64,000 bases of DNA from Demequina sp. B12 (GTDB lineage: Bacteria > Actinomycetota > Actinomycetes > Actinomycetales > Demequinaceae), in contig NZ_JAPEHU010000003.1 of the NCBI RefSeq assembly GCF_028823635.1, positions 248,001 through 312,000 on the forward strand, read 5' to 3'. The position numbers and the translations under genes were made by a program. Each line of letters opens with the position of its first letter. Positions within the stretch are counted from its first letter, which is position 1. Below the pieces are notes generated by a model. It saw only the letters and a program-made list of their open reading frames with translations. It was not told where the DNA came from and did not search any database. Below are positions 52,948 to 57,456 of this stretch, in pieces.

Positions 52948-53862
52948 ATGTTCAAGCGCACTGCCACCGCCTTCGCGGTGACTGCTGCTGCGGGCCTCGT
53001 GCTCGCTGGTTGCTCGTCCGCCGACGAAGACACCACGGACGAGTCCACTGCTGGCGCCACCGCCGGCACCGAAACCGAAGCGGGCGGCGACATCTCGCTG
53101 GCTGTCTTCAACGGCTGGGACGAGTCCCTCGCCACCTCGCTCCTGTGGGAGAACATCCTCGAGGGCAAGGGCTACAACGTCGAGCTCGAGTACGCCGACC
53201 CCGCCGTGGTGTTCCAGGGTGTGGCCGACGGTGACTACGACGTCGTGACCGACGTGTGGCTGCCGCTGACCCACGCTGACTACATCGAGTCCTTCGGTGA
53301 CGACATGATCGAGCTGGGTGCTTGGTTCGACTCGGCAGCGCTGACCATCGCGGTCAACGCTGACGCTCCTGTCGACTCGCTCGCCGAGCTGCCTGACTTC
53401 GTCGACGACATGAACGCCCGCATCGTGGGTATCGAGCCCGGCGCCGGTCTGACCACCGCCACGGAGAACGCCATCGAGGCCTACGGCCTGTCGGACTACG
53501 AGTTCCTGACGTCGTCGACCCCCGCGATGCTCTCCGAGCTCGACACCGCCACCTCGAACGGTGAGAACATCATCGTGACGCTGTGGGAGCCCCACTGGGC
53601 CTACGGCGCCTACGACATCAAGAACCTCGAAGACCCCGAGGGCATCCTGGGCGAGGCCGAGGAAATCGTGACCTACGCACGCACCGACTTCGACACCGAC
53701 TTCCCCGAGGTCGCCGAGTGGATCGGTAACTTCACCATGGAAGCTGACGTCCTGTACTCGCTCGAGAACGAGCTCAACGGCGCAGACTCCGCGGACTACG
53801 AGTCCATCGTGGCCGACTGGGTTGCTGCCAACCAGGAGTGGGTCGACTCGCTCACCGCGTAA
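52948..53862 (+). CDS. proX: Glycine betaine/proline-binding lipoprotein
   Basis: Substrate-binding protein of the importer, anchored by lipid on the outer face of the membrane. The 304-residue precursor has a signal peptide and lipobox LVLAGC with Cys22. The mature part has the type II periplasmic-binding fold of OpuAC/ProX with Trp and aromatic residues in NGWDESLATSLLWEN and VTLWEPHWAYGAYDIKNLED for trimethylammonium binding. It is the last gene of proVWX, 142 nt after proW, followed by a terminator. Confidence 0.95.
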   Translation: MFKRTATAFAVTAAAGLVLAGCSSADEDTTDESTAGATAGTETEAGGDISLAVFNGWDESLATSLLWENILEGKGYNVELEYADPAVVFQGVADGDYDVVTDVWLPLTHADYIESFGDDMIELGAWFDSAALTIAVNADAPVDSLAELPDFVDDMNARIVGIEPGAGLTTATENAIEAYGLSDYEFLTSSTPAMLSELDTATSNGENIIVTLWEPHWAYGAYDIKNLEDPEGILGEAEEIVTYARTDFDTDFPEVAEWIGNFTMEADVLYSLENELNGADSADYESIVADWVAANQEWVDSLTA

Positions 53863-53918: not shown

Positions 53919-54025
53919 CGTGTGTGCGCCCGGGCATCAAGACATAGACAGGCATCGGGCTGACTGGTACGTTTCCCAATGGGGGGGCGCGTTGGGTGTC
54001 CTCCGAACTTAGAAACGGAGCAAAG

Positions 54026-54448
54026 ATGCTTGACCACAGCGGGTTCTCCAGCATTAGAGACGAAATCATGAAGCATTCTCCCATTGTGACGGACACAACG
54101 AATGGAAGCCGAGCGAACTCGTACCAAGAAGTTAAAAGGAATGGCAAGACACGCTTCTATTATGCGTCAATGATACTGCTTGCGACATTTGCCTTCTTCA
54201 TGACCCCTGGCAGCATCTCAGATGCCTCTGCCGCTACAGTAACTGCTCGCGCTACGTGCGGAAACCCTGAACCGAAAACGGAGAGTCAACGCGTGCGATG
54301 TGGGCGTGGTTTTATCTACTATGAGTACATCTCAAAGTACACGGAGAGCAACAACGGAGCGAGCAAGCCCCGCACCTGCTACAAGTTCTATGCAACTGTC
54401 TGGTCGGGATGTGCATTGGGCAACTACTACAAGACCGTCTGCAAGTAG
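54026..54448 (+). CDS. Secreted five-cysteine small protein, unknown family
   Basis: I do not recognise the family. The 140-residue product has a polar N-terminus, a hydrophobic helix (about 44-60) and an Ala/Ser-rich cleavage site (ISDASA then ATVTARATC), so it looks exported by Sec. The predicted mature part of about 70 residues is basic, Tyr/Lys-rich and has Cys78, Cys92, Cys118, Cys129 and Cys139. The N-region of about 43 residues is long for a signal peptide and could hold a recognition leader, or initiation may be at ATG 54068. GGAG lies 5 nt before ATG 54026. The base composition is near 50% GC, unlike the flanks. The next gene, 16 nt on, is a TPR-type glycosyltransferase. The pair suggests a glycosylated secreted peptide or bacteriocin, as an inference. 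Confidence 0.6.
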   Translation: MLDHSGFSSIRDEIMKHSPIVTDTTNGSRANSYQEVKRNGKTRFYYASMILLATFAFFMTPGSISDASAATVTARATCGNPEPKTESQRVRCGRGFIYYEYISKYTESNNGASKPRTCYKFYATVWSGCALGNYYKTVCK

Positions 54449-54464
54449 AACTCTGTATCGACAA

Positions 54465-55574
54465 GTGGAATTCACGATTGCGATATTGGCGGAGCGCGAG
54501 AGCGAAATGCTCTCGCGCTCCGTTCGCTCCAGCCTGGAAACACACGCAACTGAGATATTGCTTGTCCCCACGAGGGGTAATGATGACCTTCTAGGAGCAC
54601 AAAGCACTGATTCTCGAGTCTCCTTAGCGCCGCACACATGGACTGGCTCATTCTCCGACGCAAGGAATCACGCCCTACGGGCCGCGAAAAACGATGTCGT
54701 CATGTTTCTCGACTCAGACGAATGGATCGATCAAAGAAGTACATCACGAGTGGCGGAAGAAATTCGTCGAGCACAGGGGAACTCTGCGGACCTGATGTCG
54801 TACAGAATCGTCGATGAGTCTACGGGGCAAGCCTCCACCGGCGTGCCTCGAGTCATTCTCAATAGGCACCAGACCAGGTACGAAGGTTACGTCCACGAGG
54901 CCGCGAGGATGATTGCACCGCGAGCCGCAGTTATCGAGAGTTCAGACCTTTCCATCCACCACAGTGGCTATTCTCTCGACGAAGACGCCATGAGAAGAAA
55001 GTACAATCGAAACCTCACGCTCCTATCACGCGATATTGCCGAGAACCCTGGCCGTGCTAGGAACTACGTTTATCTTGCCCGGCACTACCTCGCCTCGCGC
55101 GATAACAGCAGGGTGCTTGAAGCCCAAGACCACCTCGCAAGGCTTGGGCGCGACGACATACGCGACCACTTATGTCGTGATGATTACCTCGACGGGCTAC
55201 GACTAGAGTGCTGTTATCATCAGATAGGCATTGGGGACTGGCACAGCTTGAGAGAGTTCGCATCTCAGTTCGTCGAAATCCCGCCGTACCGGTATGCAGA
55301 GAACGCCTATTTTCTCGCAGTTTCCAGACTGATGTTGGGCGATGCTGATCAAAACGCCGCGGCGATCCTTGTCGACAGCCTCGAGGCGATCTCGATAACC
55401 TCTGATTCACTCCTGAGCTCGGACGGACTACATGTTGCAGCTGTTTGCGTTGCAATATTTGATGCTCTGGGACTGAAAGACGCTGCAAGCCTAGTTCGTG
55501 GAAACTACGGCCCGTGGACCGACGCGTTTTTCCTAAACTCGAAACCACGTTACACCACTCGTCATTACCAGTAG
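54465..55574 (+). CDS. Family 2 glycosyltransferase with C-terminal TPR-like region (SunS-like layout)
   Basis: The 369-residue protein opens with a GT-A strand FTIAILAERESEMLSRSV, then FSDARNHALRAAKNDVVMFLDSDEWID with DSDE at 83-86 as the metal/nucleotide site. After RYEGYVHEAA a helical region follows (KYNRNLTLLSRDIAENPGRARNYVYLARHYLASRD), like the TPR segments of tetratricopeptide GT2 enzymes. SunS, the S-glycosyltransferase of sublancin, has the same two-part plan and similar size; many other GT2 enzymes do too. The start is GTG 54465, since the upstream part of the frame reads through the peptide gene out of phase. Atypical base composition marks it, with the preceding gene, as acquired DNA. 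Confidence 0.65.
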   Translation: MEFTIAILAERESEMLSRSVRSSLETHATEILLVPTRGNDDLLGAQSTDSRVSLAPHTWTGSFSDARNHALRAAKNDVVMFLDSDEWIDQRSTSRVAEEIRRAQGNSADLMSYRIVDESTGQASTGVPRVILNRHQTRYEGYVHEAARMIAPRAAVIESSDLSIHHSGYSLDEDAMRRKYNRNLTLLSRDIAENPGRARNYVYLARHYLASRDNSRVLEAQDHLARLGRDDIRDHLCRDDYLDGLRLECCYHQIGIGDWHSLREFASQFVEIPPYRYAENAYFLAVSRLMLGDADQNAAAILVDSLEAISITSDSLLSSDGLHVAAVCVAIFDALGLKDAASLVRGNYGPWTDAFFLNSKPRYTTRHYQ

Positions 55575-55773
55575 CCGTTGCCGAGAACAGCTGCCAAGAT
55601 GTAGCGCGTCACACGTAATCAGAAGCCCTAACCGATGGACTTATGTGGTCGAGCATTCGGCCGCTAGGTCGAAAGACCTGACCAGGGTTTCGCGATGCAA
55701 ACACCACGCTTGGGCCAGGCCGTTCACTAACGTGGGAGACCTGGCCCAAGAGCGCTTTATGTTCGAGCAGGCG
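55575..55773. other. Intergenic region after the glycosyltransferase
   Basis: 199 nt. It contains the convergent terminator and, in its left part, AT-richer DNA continuing the insert up to about 55640. No repeat flanking the insert was found here or at the left border. Confidence 0.4.
55709..55750. terminator. Bidirectional terminator
   Basis: CTTGGGCCAGG and CCTGGCCCAAG arms enclose a smaller CGTT/AACG hairpin, between the glycosyltransferase and the convergent ettA gene; GCGCTTTATG follows. Confidence 0.8.
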
Positions 55774-57456
55774 TTAGTCGCGCGTGAGCTTGCGGTACGT
55801 CATGCGGTGCGGACGTGCTGCGTCGGCACCCAGACGTTCGATCTTGTTCTTCTCGTAGGCCTCGAAGTTACCTTCGAACCAGTACCAGTTCGAGGGGTTC
55901 TCTTCGGTGCCCTCATACGCGAGGATGTGGGTCGCAACGCGGTCAAGGAACCAACGGTCGTGGCTGACCACCACGGCGCATCCGGGGAACTCCAGCAGGG
56001 CGTTCTCCAGTGAACCGAGCGTTTCGACGTCGAGGTCGTTGGTCGGCTCGTCCAGCAGCAGGACGTTGCCGCCCTCCTTCAGCGTCAGCGCCAGGTTGAG
56101 GCGGTTGCGCTCACCACCGGACAACACGCCTGCGGCCTTCTGCTGGTCCGGCCCCTTGAAGCCGAACGCCGAGATGTACGCACGCGAGGGCATTTCGACC
56201 TTGCCCACATTGATGTAGTCCAGACCGTCGGAGACGACTTCCCACAGCGACTTCTTGGGGTCGATTCCGCCGCGCGACTGGTCCACGTAAGACACCTGCA
56301 CGGTCTCGCCGACCTTCAGCTCGCCGTCGTCCAGCGGCTCCAGACCCACGATGGTCTTGAACAGGGTGGTCTTACCTACACCGTTCGGACCAATCACACC
56401 CACGATGCCGTTGCGCGGCAGCGAGAAGGACAGCCCGTCGATCAGCGTGCGGTCGCCAAAGCCCTTCTTGAGGTTCTTGGCTTCGATGACCACATTGCCC
56501 AAGCGCGGGCCCGGGGGAATCTGAATCTCTTCGAAATCGAGCTTCCTGGTCTTCTCCGCCTCAGCCGCCATCTCTTCATAGCGGGCCAAACGAGCCTTGG
56601 ACTTGGTCTGGCGACCCTTGGCGTTGGAGCGCACCCACTCGAGTTCGTCCTTCAGACGCTTGGACAGCTTGGCGTCCTTCTTGCCCTGGACCTGAAGACG
56701 TTCCTGCTTCTTCTCCAGGTAAGTCGAGTAGTTGCCCTCGTAGGGGTACAGGCGTCCGCGGTCCACTTCACAGATCCACTCTGCGACGTGGTCCAGGAAG
56801 TAACGGTCGTGAGTGACGGCCATAACAGCGCCGGGGTACTTGGCGAGGTGCTGCTCGAGCCACAGCACGGACTCGGCGTCCAGGTGGTTCGTGGGCTCGT
56901 CGAGCAGCAGCAGGTCGGGCTTTTCCAGGAGGAGCTTGCACAGTGCGACGCGGCGACGTTCACCACCGGACAGCACCGAGACATCGGCGTCCGGCGGCGG
57001 GCACCGGAGGGCATCCATGGCCTGTTCGAGCTGGCTGTCCAGGTCCCACGCATCCGCGTGGTCCAGTTCTTCCTGGAGGGTGCCCATCTCAGCGAGCAAG
57101 GCATCGTAGTCCGCATCGGGGTTGGCCATCTCTTCCGAGATCGCGTTGAAGCGGTCGAGCTTGCCCTTGATTTCTGCGACGCCTTCTTCGACGTTGCCCA
57201 GGACGGTCTTGTCCTCGTTCAGCGGCGGCTCCTGCATCAGGATGCCCACGGTGTAACCAGGGCTCAGTCGAGCCTCACCGTTCGAGGGCTCCTCGAGACC
57301 CGCCATAATCTTCAGAATGGTCGACTTACCAGCGCCGTTAGGACCAACGACACCGATCTTTGCGCCAGGATAGAACGCCATCGTGACGTCATCGAGGATG
57401 ACCTTGTCGCCATGCGCCTTGCGCGCCTTGTGCATCGTGTAGATGAACTCTGCCAC
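55774..57456 (-). CDS. ettA: ABC-F translation factor, energy-dependent translational throttle
   Basis: A soluble ABC-F protein that binds the ribosomal E site and gates entry into elongation depending on ATP. The 560 residues hold two ATPase domains (GPNGAGKSTILKIMAG and GPNGVGKTTLFKTIVG Walker A, LSGGERRRVALCKLLL and LSGGERNRLNLALTL signatures) joined by the linker with the arm region. Length and the two signatures match EttA. Initiation is at GTG with GGAGCAGCA. It is probably a housekeeping gene. Confidence 0.96.
   Translation of the reverse strand: MAEFIYTMHKARKAHGDKVILDDVTMAFYPGAKIGVVGPNGAGKSTILKIMAGLEEPSNGEARLSPGYTVGILMQEPPLNEDKTVLGNVEEGVAEIKGKLDRFNAISEEMANPDADYDALLAEMGTLQEELDHADAWDLDSQLEQAMDALRCPPPDADVSVLSGGERRRVALCKLLLEKPDLLLLDEPTNHLDAESVLWLEQHLAKYPGAVMAVTHDRYFLDHVAEWICEVDRGRLYPYEGNYSTYLEKKQERLQVQGKKDAKLSKRLKDELEWVRSNAKGRQTKSKARLARYEEMAAEAEKTRKLDFEEIQIPPGPRLGNVVIEAKNLKKGFGDRTLIDGLSFSLPRNGIVGVIGPNGVGKTTLFKTIVGLEPLDDGELKVGETVQVSYVDQSRGGIDPKKSLWEVVSDGLDYINVGKVEMPSRAYISAFGFKGPDQQKAAGVLSGGERNRLNLALTLKEGGNVLLLDEPTNDLDVETLGSLENALLEFPGCAVVVSHDRWFLDRVATHILAYEGTEENPSNWYWFEGNFEAYEKNKIERLGADAARPHRMTYRKLTRD

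What the first reader, a model, noticed from the sequence alone, without database searches (positions are those of the whole stretch)
53996..55640. AT-richer two-gene insert: secreted five-Cys protein plus TPR-type glycosyltransferase, a possible glycosylated-peptide (glycocin-like) system
Seen: base composition near 50% GC against a GC-rich background, a 140-residue protein with export signal and five cysteines in a mature part of about 70 residues, and a GT2 enzyme with DSDE motif and TPR-like tail starting 16 nt later. Known: SunS-type enzymes of this plan glycosylate a Cys of sublancin, whose core also has five Cys. Inference: the enzyme may modify the neighbouring peptide. Differences from known glycocins are the Sec-type export, a larger peptide and no PCAT transporter, so this would be a new variant. 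No immunity gene is seen.
Basis: partly seen in the sequence, partly recalled or inferred. Interest (0 to 1): 0.8.

Follow-up and report, generated by a model that had tools for sequence, protein, structure and literature searches.

The report
Secreted cysteine peptide with sugar-transferase partner
A two-gene island found in only one bacterial species so far pairs a small exported cysteine-rich peptide with an enzyme resembling those that put sugars on bacteriocins, so it may make a new kind of sugar-tagged peptide, but the link is not proven.

Summary
In detail: between opuAC and an ettA-like gene lies a 1.8 kb stretch at 51-56% GC with two co-directional genes: a 140-aa precursor (export-signal-like stretch, 71-residue mature part, five Cys, net charge +7) and, 16 nt on, a 369-aa GT2 enzyme. 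In 17 of 29 same-genus loci a thioesterase gene sits there instead. The peptide has no credible relative in what was searched. The enzyme belongs to the broad SunS/GmaR-like GT2 group; whether it falls inside the glycocin subclade is unresolved: trees lean that way (97/82, 81/98, long branch), AU tests do not reject the alternatives, class profiles score 127.6 against 125.6 bits. SunS is also the best NCBIfam match of 10 of 10 control GT2 enzymes, nine scoring higher, so that match proves little. A nucleotide-pocket Asp present in 62 of 62 compared rows is lost. Also found: a perfect 14-bp hairpin in the first 60 nt of the enzyme gene; a hairpin follows the precursor gene in 5 of 6 glycocin-type clusters examined. 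No C39 domain was found in the genome, so it is not a glycocin as defined. Best reading (0.4): the enzyme glycosylates the neighbouring peptide before Sec export.

The parts
53936..55762 (.). insert that takes the place of the thioesterase gene seen between opuAC and the ettA-like gene in relatives (approximate limits)
   Evidence: blastn homology with same-genus loci reaches 53935 at most on the left and resumes between 55763 and 55783 on the right; thioesterase in 20 of 29, opuAC plus thioesterase in 17 of 29 fetched same-genus loci, Pfam 4HBT_2; not found in the own genome
54026..54448 (+). precursor of a secreted peptide, 140 aa: 42-residue N-terminal part, hydrophobic stretch, ASA|A site, mature 71 aa with 5 Cys and net charge +7 (GTG 53996 is an alternative start, 150 aa)
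   Evidence: no family in Pfam, NCBIfam, PHROGs, PADLOC
54465..55574 (+). GT2 glycosyltransferase of the SunS/GmaR-like group, 369 aa; W59, F63, R67-N68, D83-S-D85, H144-E145, H166-x-GY, R182-N183 kept, DTGS pocket motif changed to PTRG at 35-38
54490..54522 (+). perfect 14-bp inverted repeat with 5-nt loop inside the first 60 nt of the GT gene: candidate attenuating or stabilising hairpin
   Evidence: z -3.6, 0 of 200 shuffles; only copy in the genome, exact core pattern; 0 of 1000 synonymous-codon shuffles fold as well

Best explanation
The two genes form a minimal operon gained by horizontal transfer. The first encodes a cationic, disulfide-type secreted peptide, most likely a bacteriocin-like weapon. 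The second encodes a cytosolic GT2 enzyme that adds one or a few sugars to the precursor (on Cys, or on Ser/Thr) before the Sec machinery exports it and signal peptidase cuts at ASA|A. With five Cys, four could pair and one carry a sugar, as in sublancin (recalled). The hairpin at the start of the enzyme gene would keep enzyme output low relative to peptide. Shown: gene order, spacing, five Cys, GT2 homology, foreign composition, replaced gene, hairpin, no C39 match in the genome. Inferred: the export signal (by eye), one transcript, peptide as acceptor, site and sugar, antibacterial use, role of the hairpin.
For: 16-nt spacing on one strand in an insert where no other ORF looks like a gene. 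The enzyme falls with the rows I labelled glycocin-type in two trees, 97/82 with 44 rows and 81/98, below the starred level, with 63 rows. In plasmids 107 of 121 hit records are Enterococcus, many of them near-copies; of ten plasmid regions opened, four have an annotated C39- or peptidase-type transporter beside the enzyme and two an ABC transporter with thioredoxins. Best structural matches of the model are ThuS (Z 22.8, 276 residues, rmsd 6.6) and SunS (20.8, 274, 6.3), next family 17.7 over 162 residues. Peptide-then-hairpin order as in 5 of 6 glycocin-type clusters examined.
Against: Level profile scores, 127.6 glycocin versus 125.6 generic, while nine labelled members differ by 44-81 bits. 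AU tests do not reject grouping with actinobacterial rows, p 0.18 and 0.23; the glycocin rows without the window are themselves held together only at 55/72. Asp at 35, present in 62 of 62 other rows, is Pro; Asn/Asp at 11, also in 62 of 62, is Arg. The C-terminal half scores 3.6 bits on the glycocin C-terminal profile: 5 of 2000 shuffles reach that, but so do 6 of 35 generic enzymes. The model was built with a SunS sequence in its alignment, so one search is not independent. Other opened plasmid hits are a flagellar locus (34), Pantoea without a transporter in the stretch and two unannotated records. No PCAT, oxidoreductase or immunity gene.
Confidence: 0.4

Rival explanations
1. The enzyme glycosylates something else (cell-wall polymer, another protein, a surface glycan) and the peptide is an independent, unmodified secreted bacteriocin or effector that travelled with it.
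For: SunS/GmaR-like GT2 enzymes without a recognisable small-peptide neighbour occur in actinobacteria: by eye none around the 12 loci or the 3 printed. Profile scores do not favour the glycocin class. GmaR is the top PDB match by a hair (48.6 bits against 48.2 for SunS).
Against: Two genes 16 nt apart with no other apparent gene in the insert; tree lean to glycocin-type enzymes.
Confidence: 0.33
2. The enzyme is degenerate or has changed donor: an intact reading frame with an altered nucleotide pocket, so the peptide acts alone and the gene is on its way out, or the donor is not a UDP-sugar.
For: DTGS is PTRG at 35-38, Thr42 is Leu and Asn/Asp11 is Arg, positions kept in 56-62 of 62 other rows apart from Thr36, which is unchanged here; very long branch, 2.55 and 1.89 changes per column; a hairpin overlaid on the first coding bases.
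Against: The other near-invariant residues between 59 and 186 are kept, apart from Ser for the usual Ala at 84; the frame is open over 369 codons with GC 0.60/0.45/0.58 by codon position.
Confidence: 0.17
3. The small ORF is not a real secreted peptide gene and the enzyme stands alone.
For: No credible relative of the peptide in the searches made; GC by codon position 0.40/0.50/0.62 is not typical; low-confidence model, pLDDT 53.
Against: Ribosome-binding site, hydrophobic stretch followed by ASA|A, five Cys all in the mature part, tight spacing to the next gene.
Confidence: 0.1

Closest known systems
Glycocins (sublancin, glycocin F/ASM1, enterocin 96/F4-9 type)
   Same: small Cys-rich precursor gene and a SunS-like GT2 gene side by side; five Cys as in sublancin; hairpin after the precursor gene (5 of 6 clusters examined)
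   Different: Sec-type signal by eye instead of a leader for a C39 transporter; mature part of 71 residues; no C39 match in the genome; no thioredoxin-like gene in the insert; Cys spacing unlike sublancin; SunS-model score below all seven glycocin-type enzymes tested
SunS / ThuS peptide S-glycosyltransferases (TIGR04195; PDB 7msp, 7msn, 7msk)
   Same: GT-A domain with DxD, HE, HxGY, RN motifs; best structural matches
   Different: 48 bits against a cut-off of 350; DTGS pocket motif replaced; C-terminal half matched only weakly and not specifically
GmaR of Listeria (PDB 22ao; flagellin glycosylation recalled)
   Same: equally similar GT2 domain (48.6 bits)
   Different: longer protein in a flagellar gene cluster; no flagellar gene in this insert
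S/O-HexNAc-transferase of an actinobacterium (Sharma, Ahlawat and Rao 2021) and glycocin clusters beyond Firmicutes (Singh and Rao 2021)
   Same: S-linked glycosylation in actinobacteria is already in print by title
   Different: seen only as reference-list titles and in citing passages; papers not held, so whether a Sec-exported peptide is involved there is not known to me

Membership tests
Glycocin (RiPP) | short Cys-rich precursor gene adjacent to a GT gene | tested here: met
   140-aa precursor, 5 Cys, 16 nt upstream of the GT
Glycocin (RiPP) | GT of the glycocin S/O-transferase clade | tested here: inconclusive
   trees 97/82 and 81/98 for; AU p 0.18/0.23 and profile scores 127.6 v 125.6 undecided
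Glycocin (RiPP) | leader cut by a C39 peptidase-containing transporter (PCAT) | tested here: not met
   no PF03412 match in the own genome, while 8 of 14 control genomes ring; precursor has a Sec-type signal by eye
Glycocin (RiPP) | thioredoxin-like oxidoreductase genes in the cluster (not in every known one) | tested here: not met
   no further gene recognised in the insert
Glycocin (RiPP) | sugar on Cys/Ser/Thr of the product | not testable with these tools
   needs mass spectrometry
SunS family TIGR04195 | score at or above the curated cut-off (350 bits) | tested here: not met
   48.3 bits; seven enzymes of glycocin-type clusters also miss it, at 126-186 bits
Pfam GT2 (PF00535) | score above gathering cut-off | tested here: met
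   34.7 bits, cut-off 23.3
Sec-exported protein | positively charged stretch, hydrophobic core, AxA cleavage site | tested here: inconclusive
   all three seen by eye at residues 36-69, behind an unusual 42-residue N-terminal part; no prediction program available

The most novel reading that the evidence does not exclude
A minimal two-gene glycopeptide system in which a cytosolic SunS/GmaR-like enzyme with a rebuilt nucleotide pocket modifies a precursor whose long N-terminal part guides the enzyme, after which the Sec pathway, not a dedicated C39 transporter, exports the product: a PCAT-free, Sec-exported glycosylated bacteriocin class outside Firmicutes.
Probability: 0.25. Interest if true: 0.7.

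Novelty: new variant of a known kind. Interest (0 to 1): 0.45.

Why it matters
Glycocins as described rely on a C39 transporter that cuts off the leader, mostly at a double glycine (a Gly-Lys site is also reported, PMC12457901, abstract and passages seen). A Sec-exported one would show that peptide glycosylation can be run by two genes with housekeeping export, and would make such peptides easy to produce. The changed nucleotide pocket would also bear on donor choice in this enzyme group.

Tried and rejected
Peptide relatives: besides itself 3 weak matches among 198 other relatives (E 0.004-0.006), 3 among 395 other genomes of the order (E 0.007-0.008), 1 plasmid at E 0.2, a PDB chain (PeiW) at E 0.16, none in phages or viral contigs. 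L010, L129 and L130 were read: the matched stretches lie in alternative or opposite frames of other genes, by eye. L009, L011 and L131 were not opened. Taken as chance.

C-terminal homology with glycocin enzymes: it looked promising by eye. The profile score of 3.6 bits is reached by 5 of 2000 shuffles and by 6 of 35 generic enzymes; hhalign gave P 0.003 but probability 10% over 135 columns. A faint signal, not specific to glycocins. The first attempt failed in its main search on a file error; its leave-one-out part ran.

CX6C as a glycocin hallmark: dropped, since of four other precursors counted only sublancin's shows it.

Fold of the peptide: single-sequence model at pLDDT 53, best fold match E 0.11; not interpretable.

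Promoter and terminator scans: 1 promoter-like and 2 terminator-like sites, against means of 0.9 and 1.7 in shuffles. GmaR is not among the 50 rows shown.

Peptide neighbours of other GT loci: searches (L013-L025, filtered for short ORFs with at least four Cys; 12 loci; four loci given, L124 printed nothing) were read by eye only. output was cut. One search has no positive control of its own.

Rows left out of the trees and profiles: matches under 30 bits (L001-L006 where matched, L025), the phage copy L028, the SunS copies L108-L112 and L115, and the partial rows L102, L105, L116-L118; L024 was left out of the generic profile.

Full report
The window lies in a 2.33 Mb, nearly complete genome without a name (G000:C30:248001-312000). 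That it is an actinobacterium is my inference from GC, gene content and large-genome class mates; no call names it.

What is there. Between opuAC (52948-53862; Pfam OpuAC) and an ettA-like ABC-F gene (55774-57456, minus strand; two ABC_tran stretches and ABC_tran_Xtn; the name ettA is recalled) GC drops to 0.51-0.56. Two plus-strand genes fill the gap: a precursor of 140 aa from ATG 54026 and a GT2 enzyme of 369 aa from GTG 54465, 16 nt after the precursor's stop. The mature part after ASA|A has 71 residues, Cys at 9, 23, 49, 60 and 70, eight Tyr and net charge +7. GC3 of both genes (0.62, 0.58) is far below that of the neighbours (0.88, 0.82).

Origin. The ettA-like gene was found in 41 of 41 genus genomes, the own one included; 30 loci were fetched, 29 of them from relatives, each with at most 1.5 kb of flank. 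Seventeen of the 29 show opuAC within that flank and all 17 also have a thioesterase gene (4HBT_2) between the two; 20 of 29 have the thioesterase. The window genome has the two-gene island there instead, with homology ending near 53935 and resuming near 55763. No thioesterase match was found elsewhere in it (a search without its own positive control). So the island looks like a gain that replaced a gene.

Who else has it. The peptide has no credible relative in 198 other relatives, 395 other genomes of the order (mature part), plasmids, phages or viral contigs, and no family in four libraries. The enzyme has only distant relatives: 11 of 198 other relatives at 1e-8, 4 of 395 in the order and 29 of 395 in the phylum at 1e-10, 121 plasmid records, 9 phage records, 2 loci in the named genome collection, none in viral contigs with the single sequence. 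With an alignment that holds the enzyme itself (A1), 25 of 344 other class genomes match at 1e-15 and 11 viral loci are found, six of them SunS copies.

What the enzyme is. It is GT2 by Pfam. Best matches are SunS in NCBIfam (48.3 bits, cut-off 350), GmaR, SunS and 7msk (ThuS, so named) in the PDB (48.6, 48.2 and 33.9 bits), and phrog_13126, a beta-1,4-glycosyltransferase (57.8 bits). Of ten plasmid regions opened, four have an annotated C39- or peptidase-type transporter next to the enzyme (short precursors read for these four), two an ABC transporter with thioredoxins, one is the Listeria flagellar locus (34), Pantoea shows small neighbours but no transporter in the stretch, two had no annotation.

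How specific is that? In a control, 10 of 10 GT2 pieces (nine actinobacterial hits and GmaR) also have SunS as best NCBIfam match, at 41.8-107.3 bits, nine of them above this enzyme; seven enzymes of glycocin-type clusters score 126-186. So a SunS best match at 48 bits says only that the enzyme is in this wide group. Trees: with 44 rows the window enzyme joins the eight rows I labelled glycocin-type (Pantoea among them) at 97/82; with 63 rows it joins nine (the actinobacterial L089 added) at 81/98, and no starred set holds it. Its end branch is the longest (2.55, 1.89). Forcing it with all actinobacterial rows or with same-order rows is not rejected (p 0.183 and 0.23), and the eight glycocin rows without it stand at 55/72 (on the 44-row tree). 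Profile scores are 127.6 for glycocin (9 rows) and 125.6 for generic (52 rows); 15 random generic sets of nine give 98-119. Left-out glycocin rows favour their class by 44-81 bits and 12 sampled generic rows theirs by 81-144. The enzyme is an outlier of both, leaning slightly to glycocin. Its C-terminal half reaches 3.6 bits on the glycocin C-terminal profile, as do 5 of 2000 shuffles and 6 of 35 generic enzymes. A model (mean pLDDT 64) built from five sequences, one of them a SunS, matches ThuS and SunS over about 275 residues at Z 22.8 and 20.8 (rmsd above 6), the next family 17.7 over 162; supportive but not independent.

A departure. Near-invariant residues between 59 and 186 are kept (W59, F63, R67, N68, D83, D85, H144, E145, H166, G168, Y169, K179, R182, N183), apart from Ser for the usual Ala at 84. 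The DTGS motif is PTRG: Asp is at position 35 in 62 of 62 other rows, Gly at 37 in 60, Ser at 38 in 61, Thr at 42 in 56; position 11 is Asn or Asp in 62 of 62 and Arg here. From general knowledge of GT-A enzymes the Asp contacts the nucleotide base, so donor choice or activity may have changed. One possible alignment puts a one-residue insertion there; the Asp is lost either way.

A hairpin. A perfect 14-bp inverted repeat with a 5-nt loop lies at 54490-54522, inside the first 60 nt of the enzyme gene. The RNA folds at -45.1 kcal/mol, z -3.6, 0 of 200 shuffles; 0 of 1000 synonymous-codon shuffles fold as well; its exact core pattern occurs once in the genome. Perfect arms of 12 or more with a loop of 3-12 occur at seven places in the 64 kb window and at none in 10 shuffles. 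Of six glycocin-type clusters given to the same test, five (sublancin, Photobacterium, two Enterococcus, L119) have a hairpin within 80 nt after the precursor gene (z -2.5 to -4.3) and the enterocin-96-type one does not (z -0.6); the Lactiplantibacillus and Pantoea stretches were not tested. The SPBc2 record annotates a stem-loop after the sublancin gene. Such a hairpin is a usual way to make more precursor than enzyme; it supports an operon but is not specific to glycocins.

What is missing. No C39 peptidase domain was found in the own genome, while 8 of 14 control genomes ring. By eye the island has no oxidoreductase, transporter or immunity gene. No neighbour resembling the peptide was recognised by eye around 12 actinobacterial GT loci or the three printed.

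Literature. By titles in reference lists, glycocin clusters beyond Firmicutes and an actinobacterial S/O-HexNAc-transferase are in print; neither paper is held. PMC12457901 was seen in passages, PMC9576775 in passages, PMC11976392 without a match. Searches of glycocin with Sec terms listed no title about a Sec-exported glycocin: one search listed 15 of 144 papers, 10 of 12, 10 of 19; those papers were not opened for this point, so it is no proof of absence.

Judgement. Observation confirmed; interpretation partly supported. If the best reading holds it works like a glycocin, but it is not one by the defining transporter.

Noticed in passing
   Followed up: partly
L029 1846-3629, L037 2086-4110, L030 3995-5748: A shared three-gene unit in Photobacterium, Enterococcus and Pantoea: a SunS-like GT, a 66-86 aa precursor with a GPSxVWG or GASGVWAG motif, and a 112-121 aa protein that is homologous in all three (40% and 27% identity to the Photobacterium one) and reaches no Pfam cut-off. 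The Photobacterium and Enterococcus precursors are 38% identical. Possibly an unrecognised glycocin type across Gram-positive and Gram-negative hosts.
   Followed up: partly
window 53936-55762 and relatives L039-L067: The gap between opuAC and the ettA-like gene varies in the genus; the 4HBT_2 thioesterase gene found there in 20 of 29 fetched relatives was not found in this genome.
   Followed up: partly
L026, L027, L029, L032, L037, L119: A stem-loop shortly after the precursor gene in 5 of 6 glycocin-type clusters examined, which could help to find unannotated precursors.
   Followed up: partly
TIGR04195 (NCBIfam): Seven enzymes from glycocin-type clusters fall far below the curated SunS cut-off (126-186 against 350 bits), while 10 of 10 other GT2 pieces tested have it as best match.
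   Followed up: yes
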